From Devosia nanyangense (GTDB lineage Bacteria; Pseudomonadota; Alphaproteobacteria; Rhizobiales; Devosiaceae): DNA of 64,000 nt. The position numbers and the translations under genes were made by a program. The notes under the pieces were generated by a model. It had not been told where the DNA came from and ran no database searches. It was given only the letters and a program-made list of their open reading frames with translations. This document shows positions 8,727 through 51,798 of this stretch, piece after piece. The stretch covers positions 1 to 64,000 of the forward strand of contig JACRAF010000039.1 of assembly GCA_016213505.1 (NCBI GenBank), in the 5' to 3' direction. Position 1 is the stretch's first letter; every line of letters starts with the position of its first letter.

Positions 8727-9007
8727 GTCGGCAGGCCGTTTTGGTCGTAGCCGACCGCTTCCTCGTCGGTCATCGTCCGAGGGCCGGCCCGGCGGGAATA
8801 GTCCCTTGCGACAGCCATGATCCGCTCGAACCGCTCCTGCTTGGTCAGTTCGCGCCGGTCCCGGCTCAGCTTCTCACGCAATGCCGACTTCACCGCTCCA
8901 CTGAGCGTATCACCGTGGAGCTTGGCAAGTTCGGCCGCGAGCTCATAGGTCTCGGCGTCCTTGAGGTTCAGCTGCCTTGGTCTATCGATCTTACCGAGCT
9001 CGTTCAT
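8723..9007 (-). CDS. vapB: VapB-type antitoxin (PSK-family transcription factor)
   Basis: A 94-residue protein of the Rv0623/VapB antitoxin family: an N-terminal segment with RQLNLKDAETYELAAELAKLHG, which would form a ribbon-helix-helix DNA-binding dimer, and a C-terminal arm that should wrap the toxin. The ATG at 9007 lies inside one arm of a perfect 10-bp inverted repeat and no ribosome-binding site is visible, so translation may start on a leaderless or nearly leaderless transcript. An ATG at 9035 is out of frame. Autorepression through that palindrome is the simplest model. Confidence 0.85.
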   Translation of the reverse strand: MNELGKIDRPRQLNLKDAETYELAAELAKLHGDTLSGAVKSALREKLSRDRRELTKQERFERIMAVARDYSRRAGPRTMTDEEAVGYDQNGLPT

Positions 9008-9035
9008 GGTAGAAAGGTAGGCCAGTTTCTACCAT
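9006..9035 (-). promoter_or_regulatory. vapBC operator, inverted repeat over the start codon
   Basis: A perfect 10-bp inverted repeat, ATGGTAGAAA (9006-9015) and TTTCTACCAT (9026-9035), with a 10-bp spacer. One arm contains the vapB start codon. The size and spacing suit a ribbon-helix-helix antitoxin dimer pair. Predicted from sequence symmetry. Confidence 0.65.
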
Positions 9036-9044
9036 TTGGCAAGA

Positions 9045-9623
9045 TTACGCGTGCCCGGCGTCGCCGCTGAGGCTTGCCCGGGTGATCCCCAGCTGCCCGA
9101 GCGCCGTGTCGTAACGGCTGTGGAGCGGGGTGCCGAACAGCAGATTGCGCGAGAACGGCACCGTTAGCCAGCCGTTGAGCGCGATCTCGTTCTCGAGCTG
9201 TCCTGGCGCCCAGCCGCAATAGCCGAGGGCGAACACAGCGTTGGCCGGCGCGTTCTGGAACGCCATGGCTTTGAGGATGTCGAGCGTCGCGGTGAGGCAG
9301 ATGTCGTCGTTGACGACGTAGGAATTGCCCTCGCGGAAATAGTCGGGCGAATGCAGCACGAAGCCGCGGCCGCGCTGAACCGGGCCGCCGCGCAGCACCT
9401 CGCGGTCGCGCACCGTCGAGGGCAGGCGGATGATCTGGTCCTTCTCGCCCAGCCCGAGTTCCTCGAGGATATCGGCGAAGCGCATATCTTCGACCGGCTG
9501 GTTGATGACGAGGCCCATCGCGCCCTCGTCGCCGTGACCGACGATGTAGACCACGGTCTCGTGGAAACGCTCGTCGCCCATGCCGGGCATCGCCACCAGA
9601 AACTGCCCCTTGAGGGAAATCAT
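9045..9623 (-). CDS. YqgE/AlgH family protein
   Basis: A 192-residue soluble protein (DUF179). The opening LKGQFLVAMPGMGDERFHETVVYIVGHGDEGAMGLVIN is split over the well-conserved family start, followed by GGPVQRGRGFVLH and the late GYCGWAPGQLENEI signature. Homologs occur across proteobacteria; AlgH was linked to alginate regulation in Pseudomonas, but the biochemical role is unknown. In Rhizobiales the gene is commonly next to the DsbD-like and peroxiredoxin genes, as here, divergently oriented. The ATG at 9623 fits the usual length. The 117 bp to the next start should hold both promoters; I could not define them. Confidence 0.93.
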   Translation of the reverse strand: MISLKGQFLVAMPGMGDERFHETVVYIVGHGDEGAMGLVINQPVEDMRFADILEELGLGEKDQIIRLPSTVRDREVLRGGPVQRGRGFVLHSPDYFREGNSYVVNDDICLTATLDILKAMAFQNAPANAVFALGYCGWAPGQLENEIALNGWLTVPFSRNLLFGTPLHSRYDTALGQLGITRASLSGDAGHA

Positions 9624-46620: not shown

Positions 46621-47877
46621 ATGCTCGAAACGGTTCAGCGGATTGAACCAGCACGACTGGAACGGCCCAGCGAAGAAACGGTCGACACGATCGCCACGCT
46701 TTCCGCGGCCTCCGCGACCCTGGGGCGGGCGCTAAAGCCGCAGACGGCAAACAGCTTGCGCGCTCTCGTACGCATCATGAACAGCTACTACAGCAACCTG
46801 ATCGAGGGAAACCACACGCTGCCGCGTGATATCGAAAGCGCTCTCGCGGTCATCCGGCACTCACCAGCGCATCGCAACGAGACACGGCCAGCAGAAATCG
46901 AGCGGGCGCTCAGTGACGGACCGGATCGGGACGAAGGGCGACGGAATCTCCAGTTGGAAGCTGCCGCCCATGTGCGGGTGCAGGAGGAGGTAGATCGTCA
47001 GGCCCTTGCGGGCGTTCTGCCCGAGCCGGCGTCTCAGGACTTCGTCCGCTGGCTTCATCGCGCTTTCTATGCCGGCGCGGCACCGGAATTATTGGTCGCC
47101 CGCGGAAGCGGCAAGACCTGGAAGATGATACCTGGCGAGTGGCGATCCACGTCCGACCAGGACGTCGCGGTAGGGCGTCACACGCCTCCATCCAGCGAGC
47201 GCGTCCCAGACTTCATGCAATACTTTGCTGAGCGCTACAGGACCGAGACGATGGGCAGGTCAACGCGGATCATTGCCGTCGCCGCCGCGCATCACCGCTT
47301 CAACTATATTCATCCCTTTCCCGACGGCAACGGTCGCGTCAGCCGGTTGATGAGTCACGCCCTCGCCTACAAGGCCGAGATAGCGGCTCATGGACTCTGG
47401 TCGGTGTCCCGCGGTCTGGCGCGCGGCCTCGAAAGCCGTACCGAATACAAGCGCATGATGGACTATGCCGACACTCCGCGTCAGGGTGATCTCGATGGGC
47501 GAGGAAACCTCTCCGAGAAGGCGCTGTCCGACTTTGTCCTTTGGTTCCTCAAGACCTGTGTCGATCAGGTCACCTTCATGTCCAGCCTCTTCGACCTCGA
47601 CAGTTTGGCGGATCGGCTCCACAGCTACGTCGCCCGCAAGGACAATCTCAAACCCGAAAGCACCAGAATCCTGGATCAGGTGTTGCTTCGAGGGGAGCTT
47701 GATCGCGGGGACGTCGCGTCGATCACCGGATTGCCCGAACGTAGTGCCCGTCGCGTCCTTGCCGACGTGCTGGCGACTGGACTGCTTGCGTCCGATACAC
47801 CCAAAGGCAGGCTGTCATTGCGGTTTCCTGCGGATGCAGCCGAACTCTTGTTTCCGCGACTGTTTCTTGAAACCTAA
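46621..47877 (+). CDS. Fic-domain protein with self-inhibitory motif and C-terminal winged helix
   Basis: A 418-residue Fic (AMPylase-type) protein. The catalytic loop HPFPDGNGRVSR is at 231-242. The inhibitory motif S-x-x-x-E-G occurs at 58-63 (SNLIEG), the N-terminal class II arrangement that blocks ATP until released. Residues about 345-410 look like a winged-helix domain. It would transfer AMP or another nucleotide monophosphate to an unknown protein. No ribosome site is visible; the ATG at 46621 follows a GATCGGCCAA repeat directly, so translation may be leaderless. Composition is below the genome average. Confidence 0.92.
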   Translation: MLETVQRIEPARLERPSEETVDTIATLSAASATLGRALKPQTANSLRALVRIMNSYYSNLIEGNHTLPRDIESALAVIRHSPAHRNETRPAEIERALSDGPDRDEGRRNLQLEAAAHVRVQEEVDRQALAGVLPEPASQDFVRWLHRAFYAGAAPELLVARGSGKTWKMIPGEWRSTSDQDVAVGRHTPPSSERVPDFMQYFAERYRTETMGRSTRIIAVAAAHHRFNYIHPFPDGNGRVSRLMSHALAYKAEIAAHGLWSVSRGLARGLESRTEYKRMMDYADTPRQGDLDGRGNLSEKALSDFVLWFLKTCVDQVTFMSSLFDLDSLADRLHSYVARKDNLKPESTRILDQVLLRGELDRGDVASITGLPERSARRVLADVLATGLLASDTPKGRLSLRFPADAAELLFPRLFLET

Positions 47878-50607: not shown

Positions 50608-50825
50608 TCGCCATCGCCATCCGCATCGTCATCTTCGCGGCCATCGGCCTCGCCATCTATTTCGGCGTCCGCCGCATCTGGCGCGACTGGTCCGGCCAGT
50701 TCCGCACCGAAGAAAAGGCGATCCACGACCGCGACCTCGCCGAGCGCGCCCGCCCCGACGTGATCACCTTGAAGCGCGACAAAGACGGGACGTTCCGCCC
50801 GCCGGACAAGGGGCCGCGGGACTAA
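50604..50825 (+). CDS. Small single-pass membrane protein
   Basis: A 73-residue protein: one membrane helix (about 2-20, IAIRIVIFAAIGLAIYFGV) and a charged C-terminal tail with DLKRDKDGTFRP-like residues (VITLKRDKDGTFRP). It starts inside the stop codon of the S49 peptidase, the strongest coupling in the window. Similar pairs occur in Rhizobiales. It may anchor the peptidase at the membrane; that is an inference. Confidence 0.75.
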   Translation: MIAIAIRIVIFAAIGLAIYFGVRRIWRDWSGQFRTEEKAIHDRDLAERARPDVITLKRDKDGTFRPPDKGPRD

Positions 50826-51451
50826 ACGGGCATGCCAAGAGCCATCCACTCGGTCATAGCGGCGAGGAGTTCAGCGGTGGGGTAGTCCCGAATGTCTTTC
50901 TCGTCGAACCCCGCCGTCAGTTGCCCCTCATAGTACCATTTCTGGAACAGCGCATATCGGTCGATGATGCGAGAGGCGCCGGGTGCCTTGATCCCGGCTT
51001 CGCTCACGAGCCAGTTCCGGACTTTGCGGATGACGACATCGAACTGGCCGCCGTGCACCTGGATGTCGCATCCAGCCAGGTCGGAGAGGCCAGCCTGATA
51101 CTGCCGCGCGACTTGCTCCAGGATGAGCAGTCGCTTGCCGGCGAAGCGTCCGTCTCCATACTCGCGACAGCCGTAGTCGAGGCCGAGTTCGAACGGCATA
51201 TTCAGTCGATAGAACTCGCCCTTGTTCTTGGCCTGAATCCGGCTCAGGTCGTGTATCGAGAACTTCGCTGTGCGAATGAGGGCCATGATTTTGTGCAGCC
51301 TGACGCTGGCGGAGTCATTGCTCTCGGACGCGATGCGCGGGGTGAGCTTCAGGTAGATCAGGCAAAAGAGCATCGCCTGGAGGAGGGGAGCGAAGTCTCC
51401 GTCGAACGGACAATTAATGAAGACGGAAGTCTCGAACTCCGCCTTCTCCAC
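50822..51451 (-). CDS. TIR/nucleoside-deoxyribosyltransferase-like protein of unknown function
   Basis: A 209-residue alpha/beta protein. The first strand and loop read FINCPFD (11-17), followed by SESND..SVRLHKI (42-55), HDLSR (67-71), NMPFELGL with E88 (84-91), and a late RNWL helix (145-148). A strand-PFD start, a D-L-S turn and a FELG helix are what TIR-like and nucleoside 2-deoxyribosyltransferase-like folds show, so NAD or nucleotide cleavage is possible. I infer the fold, not the activity. It lies 3 bp after the DUF2188 gene and should be co-expressed. The cassette interrupts the conserved S49-glyQ neighbourhood. Confidence 0.7.
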   Translation of the reverse strand: MEKAEFETSVFINCPFDGDFAPLLQAMLFCLIYLKLTPRIASESNDSASVRLHKIMALIRTAKFSIHDLSRIQAKNKGEFYRLNMPFELGLDYGCREYGDGRFAGKRLLILEQVARQYQAGLSDLAGCDIQVHGGQFDVVIRKVRNWLVSEAGIKAPGASRIIDRYALFQKWYYEGQLTAGFDEKDIRDYPTAELLAAMTEWMALGMPV

Positions 51452-51454
51452 CGG

Positions 51455-51676
51455 CTAGACCTTCACGCCGACCGTGCGTGCGTAAGAACTGCGCTCGCGA
51501 ATTCTCCCGTCGGAACCGTGAACGTAGAGTTCGGAGTGCTCGCTCCGAGCCAATTCGCGCGCGCGCGCGATGGCCTCTTCCTGAGTCTCGAACGTCCCCG
51601 ATGCCCGCGTTGCCCCGCTTCTGACGACGCGCCATTTCCCCCCACCGGGGATCACGTGCTGGCTCTTCGAAGACAC
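51455..51676 (-). CDS. DUF2188 domain protein
   Basis: A 73-residue protein matching DUF2188: HVIPGGGKWRVVRSGATRASGTF, then ETQEEAIARARELAR and ELYVHGSDGRIRERSSY. It folds as a small beta-sheet with one helix and is found in many bacteria without known function. GTG 51676 has AGGAGG seven bases upstream. The next gene (50822-51451) begins 3 bp after its stop. As a compact companion it could be an inhibitor, adaptor or sensor for the TIR-like protein. Confidence 0.82.
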   Translation of the reverse strand: MSSKSQHVIPGGGKWRVVRSGATRASGTFETQEEAIARARELARSEHSELYVHGSDGRIRERSSYARTVGVKV

Positions 51677-51798
51677 TCTAGCCTCCTACAGGCTGCTGCA
51701 TTGTTCAGCTTCGCGTCGAAGATAGTATGCCGAACGGAACTTGCCAACTGATGGACGTCGCCGTCGTCGAGGTGTCCGCTCTCCTGACGGCCGCCCCC

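What the first reader, a model, noticed from the sequence alone, without database searches (positions are those of the whole stretch)
50822..51676. Two-gene DUF2188 plus TIR/deoxyribosyltransferase-like cassette
Seen: a 73-residue DUF2188 gene and, 3 bp later, a 209-residue gene with FINCPFD, HDLSR and NMPFELGL motifs, one strong ribosome site, inserted in a conserved neighbourhood next to a GGDEF-EAL gene. Inference: the larger protein may be a NAD- or nucleotide-processing enzyme kept in check or triggered by the DUF2188 partner, the layout of a small anti-phage or toxin-like module. I know of no experimental description of this pairing.
Basis: partly seen in the sequence, partly recalled or inferred. 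Interest (0 to 1): 0.75.

Follow-up and report, generated by a model that had tools for sequence, protein, structure and literature searches.

The report
Tiny mobile TIR-like immune gene pair
A two-gene cassette that moves between bacteria and phages pairs a small basic protein with an unnamed, stripped-down relative of the NAD-destroying TIR immune enzymes; because that small protein also sits at the head of other bacterial immune operons, the pair is probably a very small immune system, though this is untested.

Summary
A DUF2188 gene (51455-51676, -; PF09954, 85.4 bits) is followed, 3 nt after its stop and in the same frame, by a 209-aa gene (50822-51451, -) with no match in Pfam, NCBIfam, PHROGs, PADLOC or PDB sequences. 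The predicted fold (pLDDT 84) is a TIR/deoxyribosyltransferase-like core. By profile it is a distant relative of CAP12/PCTIR TIR domains (hhalign E 1e-4; all 100 permuted controls scored lower). Four SfSTING NADase residues (R78, N80, E84, D110) align with residues kept in 48 of 48 relatives (R82, N84, E88, D124). The pair moves between unrelated sites, plasmids and viral contigs. All 53 loci examined have a small ORF just upstream: DUF2188 in 26, other proteins in 27, mostly very basic. Elsewhere DUF2188 directly precedes CBASS, Thoeris-like TIR and ubiquitin-like operons. Against the defence reading: 18 chromosomal copies tested are not in defence islands (1 of 108 neighbours matches PADLOC), and a fused model shows no confident docking. 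Most likely: a minimal TIR-type NAD(P)-cleaving effector with a small regulatory partner, probably anti-phage. Activity and the partner's role are untested.

The parts
51455..51676 (-). DUF2188 gene, 73 aa, first gene of the cassette; small basic partner (pI 10.5)
   Evidence: PF09954 E 2.9e-24; PADLOC PDC-S16 E 4.3e-27; purifying selection in relatives
50822..51451 (-). 209-aa TIR-like (CAP12/PCTIR-related) protein, second gene; no named family found
   Evidence: (no database match)
51188..51208 (-). codons R82-L-N84-M-P-F-E88: aligned to SfSTING R78/N80/E84 (E84 catalytic)
   Evidence: 48 of 48 relatives keep R82, N84, E88; alignments; residue roles
51080..51085 (-). codons S123-D124: D124 aligned to SfSTING D110, the residue given by the opposite TIR subunit
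   Evidence: 48 of 48 keep S and D
51248..51253 (-). codons H67-D68 of the HDLSR motif, invariant
   Evidence: 48 of 48
51682..51687 (-). Shine-Dalgarno AGGAGG of the DUF2188 gene
   Evidence: sequence
51719..51747 (-). promoter-like site TTGGCA-17-TATCTT
   Evidence: consensus match only
50826..51798 (.). 973-bp segment between the flanking genes that is 4 bp in congener G089 (approximate limits of the insert)

Best explanation
A mobile two-gene module. The second gene is a minimal, sensor-less relative of CAP12/PCTIR TIR domains that most likely cleaves the N-glycosidic bond of NAD(P)+ (or a close nucleotide) as a homodimer or oligomer, with E88 as catalytic glutamate, R82/N84 binding substrate and D124 contributed by the neighbouring subunit. 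The first gene is translated first and makes a small basic protein (DUF2188, or another basic protein in the other clade) that controls the enzyme, keeping it inactive or helping it assemble when a phage arrives. The likely result is growth arrest or abortive infection. Shown here: gene pair, mobility, selection, predicted fold, profile homology, invariant active-site residues, recurrent small partner. Inferred: NADase activity, oligomerisation, control by the partner, anti-phage role.
For: Model pLDDT 84.3, pTM 0.85; structural matches to DNPH1 (8rps, Z 14.9, 124 residues, 2.2 A), MilB (4jem, Z 13.8), SPARTA TIR (8qlo, Z 13.4) and plant TIRs (Z about 12.6). hhalign to a 7-sequence CAP12/PCTIR alignment: E 1e-4, score 35.5; 100 column-permuted controls mean 13.5, max 20.6; reversed 16.7. 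With 3 such sequences the score was 26.8; TIR_2, NDT and unrelated S49 alignments gave 17.0, 15.1 and 17.8. PF10137 matched weakly in 9 of 48 relatives, the next families in 2. SfSTING R78/N80/E84/D110 align with R82/N84/E88/D124, each 48 of 48. A small ORF ends within 31 nt of the expected start of the large gene in 52 of 53 loci (87 nt in L073), DUF2188 in 26; partner type follows the tree, 3 changes against 16.3 in shuffles. In most pairs of distant loci only the cassette aligns, not the flanks. DUF2188 precedes CBASS, Thoeris-like TIR and ubiquitin-like operons elsewhere. The large gene is broken in four loci while the small ORF stays open, intact in three.
Against: Chromosomal copies sit among housekeeping genes: 1 of 108 neighbours of 18 loci matches PADLOC at 1e-15, while 33 models matched among 108 control proteins. 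The window protein itself matches no Pfam or PADLOC model at E up to 1. Foldseek gave no match below E 0.001, and response regulators reach Z 11.6 in the structural list, so fold similarity alone is a weak guide. The fused model does not place DUF2188 confidently (pTM 0.69; two of five models poor). DUF2188 also occurs beside unrelated effectors and without a recognised partner (8 of 23 strong loci), which argues against a dedicated inhibitor. The profile link rests on 7 template sequences and one pairwise E-value.
Confidence: 0.55

Rival explanations
1. A toxin-antitoxin (addiction) module: the large protein is a NAD or nucleotide-cleaving toxin, the small basic protein is its antitoxin, and the pair persists by addiction rather than by immunity.
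For: Small gene first, coupled to the second gene; acidic enzyme (median pI 5.8, 48 sequences) with basic partner (median pI 10.6 for 25 DUF2188 rows, 11.2 for 26 others); solitary insertion among unrelated genes; plasmids and viral contigs carry it; large gene broken in four loci with the partner ORF open.
Against: DUF2188 also leads CBASS, Thoeris-like and ubiquitin-like operons, whose effectors are unrelated; about half of the relatives have partners not recognisably related to DUF2188. Not exclusive with defence.
Confidence: 0.22
2. A nucleotide-pool enzyme of the DNPH1/MilB kind (hydrolysing a nucleotide monophosphate), perhaps sanitising or altering the pool, with an auxiliary small protein.
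For: Best structural matches are DNPH1 and MilB (Z 13.8-14.9); D68 and E88 could play the parts of DNPH1 D80 and E104 (their roles from passages; the residue match is my inference).
Against: Profile comparison favours CAP12 TIR over NDT (35.5 against 15.1); the R-x-N-x-x-x-E and S-D motifs match the TIR NADase; patchy distribution (6 of 136, 8 of 398, 14 of 397, 7 of 385 genomes, own included).
Confidence: 0.12
3. A phage-derived moron (superinfection exclusion or lysogenic conversion) left in chromosomes by prophages.
For: 11 IMG/VR contigs carry the large gene, and neighbours there include portal, major head and tail proteins (63 of 103 neighbouring ORFs scanned, from 7 contigs).
Against: No match in 50,697 phage records; the pooled Pfam scan around 18 chromosomal copies shows housekeeping families, none phage-like among the 25 of 122 families listed.
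Confidence: 0.08

Closest known systems
CAP12 / PCTIR TIR domains (Pfam PF10137; for example TIR-STING)
   Same: Profile-level homology in register, NADase residues R/N/E/D aligned and invariant
   Different: No STING, SAVED or other sensor domain found; own helical C-terminal region (137-204); separate small partner gene; the window protein is not matched by the Pfam model
DUF4062 / Swarozyc TIR-like NADases (PMC13174449, passages seen)
   Same: A TIR/NDT-like family with patchy, mobile spread and a conserved Glu
   Different: No DUF4062 model matched in 48 members; Swarozyc has a fused auxiliary domain that engages the phage portal; here the partner is a separate small protein
PADLOC candidate PDC-S16 (DUF2188 proteins)
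   Same: The small protein matches it at E 4.3e-27
   Different: The enzyme partner matches nothing in PADLOC-DB at E up to 1. That 'S' stands for a single-gene candidate is recalled
CapH+CapP, CapW and CapK+CapS controllers of immune operons (PMC13373217, passages seen)
   Same: Genes at the head of diverse immune operons; 9 of 23 strong DUF2188 loci have HTH and/or ImmA/IrrE-like or WYL genes on the divergent side (all but WYL judged by eye)
   Different: DUF2188 is on the operon strand, downstream of the presumed promoter, and no DNA-binding domain was matched
DNPH1 / MilB / nucleoside deoxyribosyltransferases
   Same: Same fold class, best structural Z
   Different: No profile similarity to NDT above controls

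Membership tests
CAP12/PCTIR TIR (PF10137) | Pfam model match of the window protein | tested here: not met
   0 families at E up to 1; weak match in 9 of 48 relatives, best E 0.0075
CAP12/PCTIR TIR (PF10137) | Profile homology over the TIR core | tested here: met
   hhalign E 1e-4, 112 columns, 100 of 100 permuted controls lower
CAP12/PCTIR TIR (PF10137) | NADase residues equivalent to SfSTING R78, N80, E84, D110 | tested here: met
   R82, N84, E88, D124 in 48 of 48; S10 and L47, also named in the passage, were not mapped
CAP12/PCTIR TIR (PF10137) | Fusion to a nucleotide-sensing domain (STING, SAVED, cNMP) | tested here: not met
   209 aa, no Pfam domain; C-terminal helices only
CAP12/PCTIR TIR (PF10137) | NADase activity on oligomerisation | not testable with these tools
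   needs enzyme assay
DUF2188 (PF09954) / PDC-S16 | Model match | tested here: met
   85.4 bits against cut-off 22; PDC-S16 92.7 bits
NDT / DNPH1 (PF05014 and kin) | Pfam or profile match | tested here: not met
   no such Pfam match; hhalign to 20 NDT sequences 15.1, no better than the S49 control 17.8
NDT / DNPH1 (PF05014 and kin) | Fold | tested here: met
   DNPH1 Z 14.9, MilB Z 13.8; shared with TIR
DUF4062 / Swarozyc | DUF4062 model match | tested here: not met
   not among the 16 families matched by 48 members at E up to 1
Type II toxin-antitoxin | Small first gene next to a larger effector gene on the same strand | tested here: met
   52 of 53 loci within 31 nt, one at 87 nt; where several ORFs overlapped I chose by eye
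Type II toxin-antitoxin | Toxicity neutralised by direct binding of the partner | not testable with these tools
   fused model gave no confident docking, which decides nothing
Defence system | Location in defence islands | tested here: not met
   18 of the 30 chromosomal loci fetched: 1 of 108 neighbours matches PADLOC; 33 models matched among 108 control proteins
Defence system | Protection against phage | not testable with these tools
   needs phage challenge

The most novel reading that the evidence does not exclude
DUF2188 (and the analogous basic proteins of the other clade) is a general leader or adaptor of bacterial immune operons, and in this cassette it is the sole regulator of a minimal TIR immune system: the basic protein detects an infection signal, possibly nucleic acid, and brings the sensor-less TIR subunits together, so that D124 of one completes the NAD-cleaving site of the next.
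Probability: 0.2. Interest if true: 0.85.

Novelty: new variant of a known kind. Interest (0 to 1): 0.62.

Why it matters
The TIR NADases used here for comparison carry a sensor in the same protein or are switched on by a dedicated signal (background knowledge; SfSTING, Swarozyc). A stripped-down TIR core that moves between replicons with only a small basic protein would be a minimal two-part system in which activation could be studied directly. It also gives a testable role for DUF2188, a domain of unknown function that recurs at the head of CBASS, Thoeris-like and ubiquitin-like operons, and it adds an unnamed family to the TIR/NDT superfamily.

Tried and rejected
DUF2188 as a YegP (DUF1508) relative, suggested by YegP genes behind CapK+CapS: hhalign score 10.8, inside the permuted range (60 permutations, mean 9.9, max 17.2); rejected at this sensitivity. 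A shared origin of DUF2188 and the other small partners: weak (score 17.2, 25 columns, no permuted control), left open; L079 appears to join both types.

Defence-island enrichment of the pair: not found at 18 of the 30 chromosomal loci fetched, those whose contigs were long enough for a control stretch of the same genome. I cut the neighbours from up to 8 to 6 per locus to fit the residue limit, giving 108 test and 108 control ORFs. ORFs came from a simple script, so some may be false. In the control, 33 PADLOC models matched, one protein each (25 listed); the answer does not say how many proteins these are, and one defence island could account for many of them.

A link to a housekeeping operon: rejected; only one pair of homologous neighbours among 108 (probably response regulators).

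Docking of the two proteins: one fused prediction, pTM 0.69, inconclusive. CAP12 structures (7un8, 9lmq) are not among the 50 rows; this excludes nothing. Searches with two of the other small partners on plasmids found only loci already known, copies of the same kind, or nothing. Extra viral scans gave no contig beyond the 11.

Literature: 'DUF2188' occurs in 7 papers (listing only; none of the titles or abstract openings concerns this pairing), 'PDC-S16' in none; the listings and the passages showed no description of the pair. Most subscription papers are outside that library.

Full report
What is there. The window holds two co-oriented genes on the minus strand: a 73-aa DUF2188 gene (51455-51676) and, 3 nt after its stop and in the same frame, a 209-aa gene (50822-51451). 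A strong Shine-Dalgarno precedes the first gene; I see none comparable before the second. A promoter-like site lies in the 122 bp before the pair. The cassette sits between a small ORF behind an S49 peptidase and a GGDEF-EAL gene. In congener G089 (L093) those two genes end 4 bp apart, against 973 bp in the window. I searched 18 other genus members for the peptidase: none has the large gene in the fetched flank (1.5 kb or to the contig end), and only G089 also shows the GGDEF-EAL gene there.

The large protein. It has no match in Pfam, PADLOC, NCBIfam or PHROGs at E up to 1, nor in PDB sequences at E up to 10. Relatives were found in 6 of 136 family genomes, 8 of 398 phylum, 14 of 397 order and 7 of 385 class genomes (own genome included in each; the sets overlap), 17 plasmid records, one contig of the GTDB collection (a scan that reaches close relatives only) and 11 viral contigs, but in no record of the phage collection. 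AlphaFold2 with 12 sequences gave pLDDT 84.3 and pTM 0.85: five strands with alternating helices, then C-terminal helices. Foldseek found nothing below E 0.001; its top rows are a deoxyribosyltransferase and SPARTA TIR subunits among response regulators and PurE. The structural aligner gave DNPH1 Z 14.9, MilB 13.8, SPARTA TIR 13.4, plant TIRs about 12.6, deoxyribosyltransferases 11-12, AbTir 11.3, but also response regulators up to 11.6. Fold alone therefore does not separate TIR from NMP glycosidase.

Which side of that superfamily. In a Pfam scan of 48 relatives, PF10137 (CAP12/PCTIR TIR) is the most recurrent weak match (9 of 48, best E 0.0075; the next families match 2); in PADLOC a CBASS TIR effector model matched 1 of 48 (E 0.0062). 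A profile comparison with 7 such TIR domains gave E 1e-4, score 35.5, against at most 20.6 in 100 column-permuted controls. Deoxyribosyltransferases (20 sequences), TIR_2 (19) and an unrelated S49 set (9) scored 15.1, 17.0 and 17.8. The alignment places R82-x-N84-x-x-x-E88 on the same pattern of CAP12, and S-D124 on its S-D. In SfSTING the paper names S10, R78 and N80 as coordinating the substrate, E84 as catalytic and D110 as coming from the opposite TIR (PMC9402430, passages seen). The 7un8 chain printed carries R, N, E and D at its positions 86, 88, 92 and 118; the offset of 8 is inferred from that match. The four equivalents are present in 48 of 48 relatives. This is the strongest argument for NAD(P) cleavage. 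Activity itself is not shown.

The partner. In 53 loci examined (window and 52 others; near-duplicates such as L014/L017/L018, L016/L019, L033/L035 and L038/L039 included) a small ORF ends within 31 nt of the expected start of the large gene in 52, and 87 nt before it in L073; in 26 it is DUF2188 by BLASTP, in 27 something else. Where several ORFs overlapped I chose one by eye. Small ORFs arise by chance in GC-rich DNA, so for the second group the weight lies on what they share: the 26 of 27 that I could delimit are short (median 65.5 aa) and strongly basic (median charge +10, pI 11.2), several with a common 'THFT..I...I' stretch. In one close pair of this group the partner has dN 0.000 and dS 0.205. 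The tree has one side with 22 of 22 DUF2188 rows and another with 23 of 26 other partners; partner type needs 3 changes against 16.3 in shuffles. In four loci the large gene is broken; the small ORF is intact in three (L011, L018, L082) and altered beside an IS6 gene in the fourth (L019).

Mobility. In most pairs of distant loci only the cassette, or part of it, aligns (up to about 860 bp); exceptions are close relatives, shared insertion sequences and some other flank stretches (for example L061 with L067 and L083, L082 with L084). The window's nearest row in the tree is from another family (G226), whereas the same-genus copy (G090) is on the other side. On viral contigs, pooled neighbours (63 of 103 ORFs, 7 contigs) include portal, head and tail proteins.

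Defence context, both ways. Around 18 chromosomal cassettes 1 of 108 neighbours matched PADLOC at 1e-15. In control stretches of the same genomes 33 models matched, one protein each, among them BilA, BilB, GajB-type helicase and PDC-S15 (25 listed; number of proteins not given), so the cassettes are not enriched. Pooled Pfam shows housekeeping genes (25 of 122 families listed). On plasmids some copies lie near a restriction endonuclease, AbiEii or RecB-like genes, but I ran no plasmid control. DUF2188 on its own tells another story. It was found in 16 of 142 class and 29 of 200 phylum genomes. Of 23 distinct loci at E 1.2e-11 or better, 4 are followed by the present family; 3 by immune genes (a multiubiquitin-like protein, below Pfam's cut-off, plus ThiF; a ThsB-like TIR at E 4e-71; a CBASS cyclase with HNH-SAVED); 1 lies next to a convergent DUF4917 gene (PDC-S21); 5 precede an unnamed family; 2 have only HTH/ImmA-type or ImmA-type divergent neighbours; and 8 show no recognised immune partner, one of these at a contig end and one with an HTH gene upstream (HTH and ImmA judged by eye, the latter from HExxH). 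Of 9 annotated plasmid neighbourhoods, 4 place DUF2188 directly before immune-type genes (CBASS phospholipase and nucleotidyltransferase in Pontibrevibacter; patatin-like phospholipase in Pseudosulfitobacter; multiubiquitin/E2/ThiF in Rhizobium phaseoli; TIR in Nitrosococcus), 1 has a TIR gene about 2 kb away (Roseibium), and 4 (Klebsiella, Cupriavidus, Agrobacterium, Nostoc) show no clear link. I picked these 9 for variety; they are not a random sample, and Klebsiella makes up 269 of the 347 records. I ran no matched control for the DUF2188 neighbourhoods.

Mechanism. The most likely reading is a TIR-type NAD(P) glycohydrolase under the control of a small basic protein. Whether the partner restrains or triggers it cannot be told: the fused model did not dock (pLDDT 86.6, pTM 0.69; two of five models poor). 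The use of DUF2188 beside unrelated effectors argues for a general role (expression, stability, signal) over a tailor-made inhibitor.

Comparison with the known. The protein shares homology and active-site residues with CAP12/PCTIR TIRs but is not matched by their Pfam model and lacks their sensor domains, so I do not file it there. It parallels DUF4062/Swarozyc (PMC13174449, passages seen) without matching that model. DUF2188 is already a PADLOC candidate; I found no paper on the pairing in the searches named in Tried and rejected. Hence a new variant of a known kind.

Noticed in passing
L216, L218, L222, L224, L226 (downstream of DUF2188): An unnamed family (386-395 aa in four loci, a 478-aa frame in L226; grouped by eye; no Pfam or PADLOC match for the two members scanned) that follows DUF2188 by 11-15 nt, in four of the five loci with divergent HTH plus ImmA/IrrE-like genes: a candidate immune effector.
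   Followed up: partly
window 51419-51446 (-): Terminator-like hairpin (10 pairs) inside the first codons of the large gene, with a weak T tail; could attenuate transcription between the two genes, or be chance.
   Followed up: no
own genome G000:C15:13331-13453 and 8803-9126: A second, weak DUF2188 match (26.8 bits) about 4 kb from a TIR_2 domain in the same genome.
   Followed up: no
L220 (G927:C25): WYL regulator, DUF2188, ThsB-like TIR, and further on a protein that looks by eye like DUF4062: a possible immune island.
   Followed up: partly
L079 upstream ORF: One small partner seems to join the 'DGV..L...FT' type and a DUF2188-like stretch in one protein.
   Followed up: no
L037, L038, L039: The cassette lies inside a stretch shared between viral contigs (L037 and L039 align over about 7 kb); the pooled PHROG scan that includes L037 found portal and head proteins.
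   Followed up: partly
window 46621-47877 (+): ORF of 418 aa with a Fic-type HPFxxGNGR motif (by eye).
   Followed up: no
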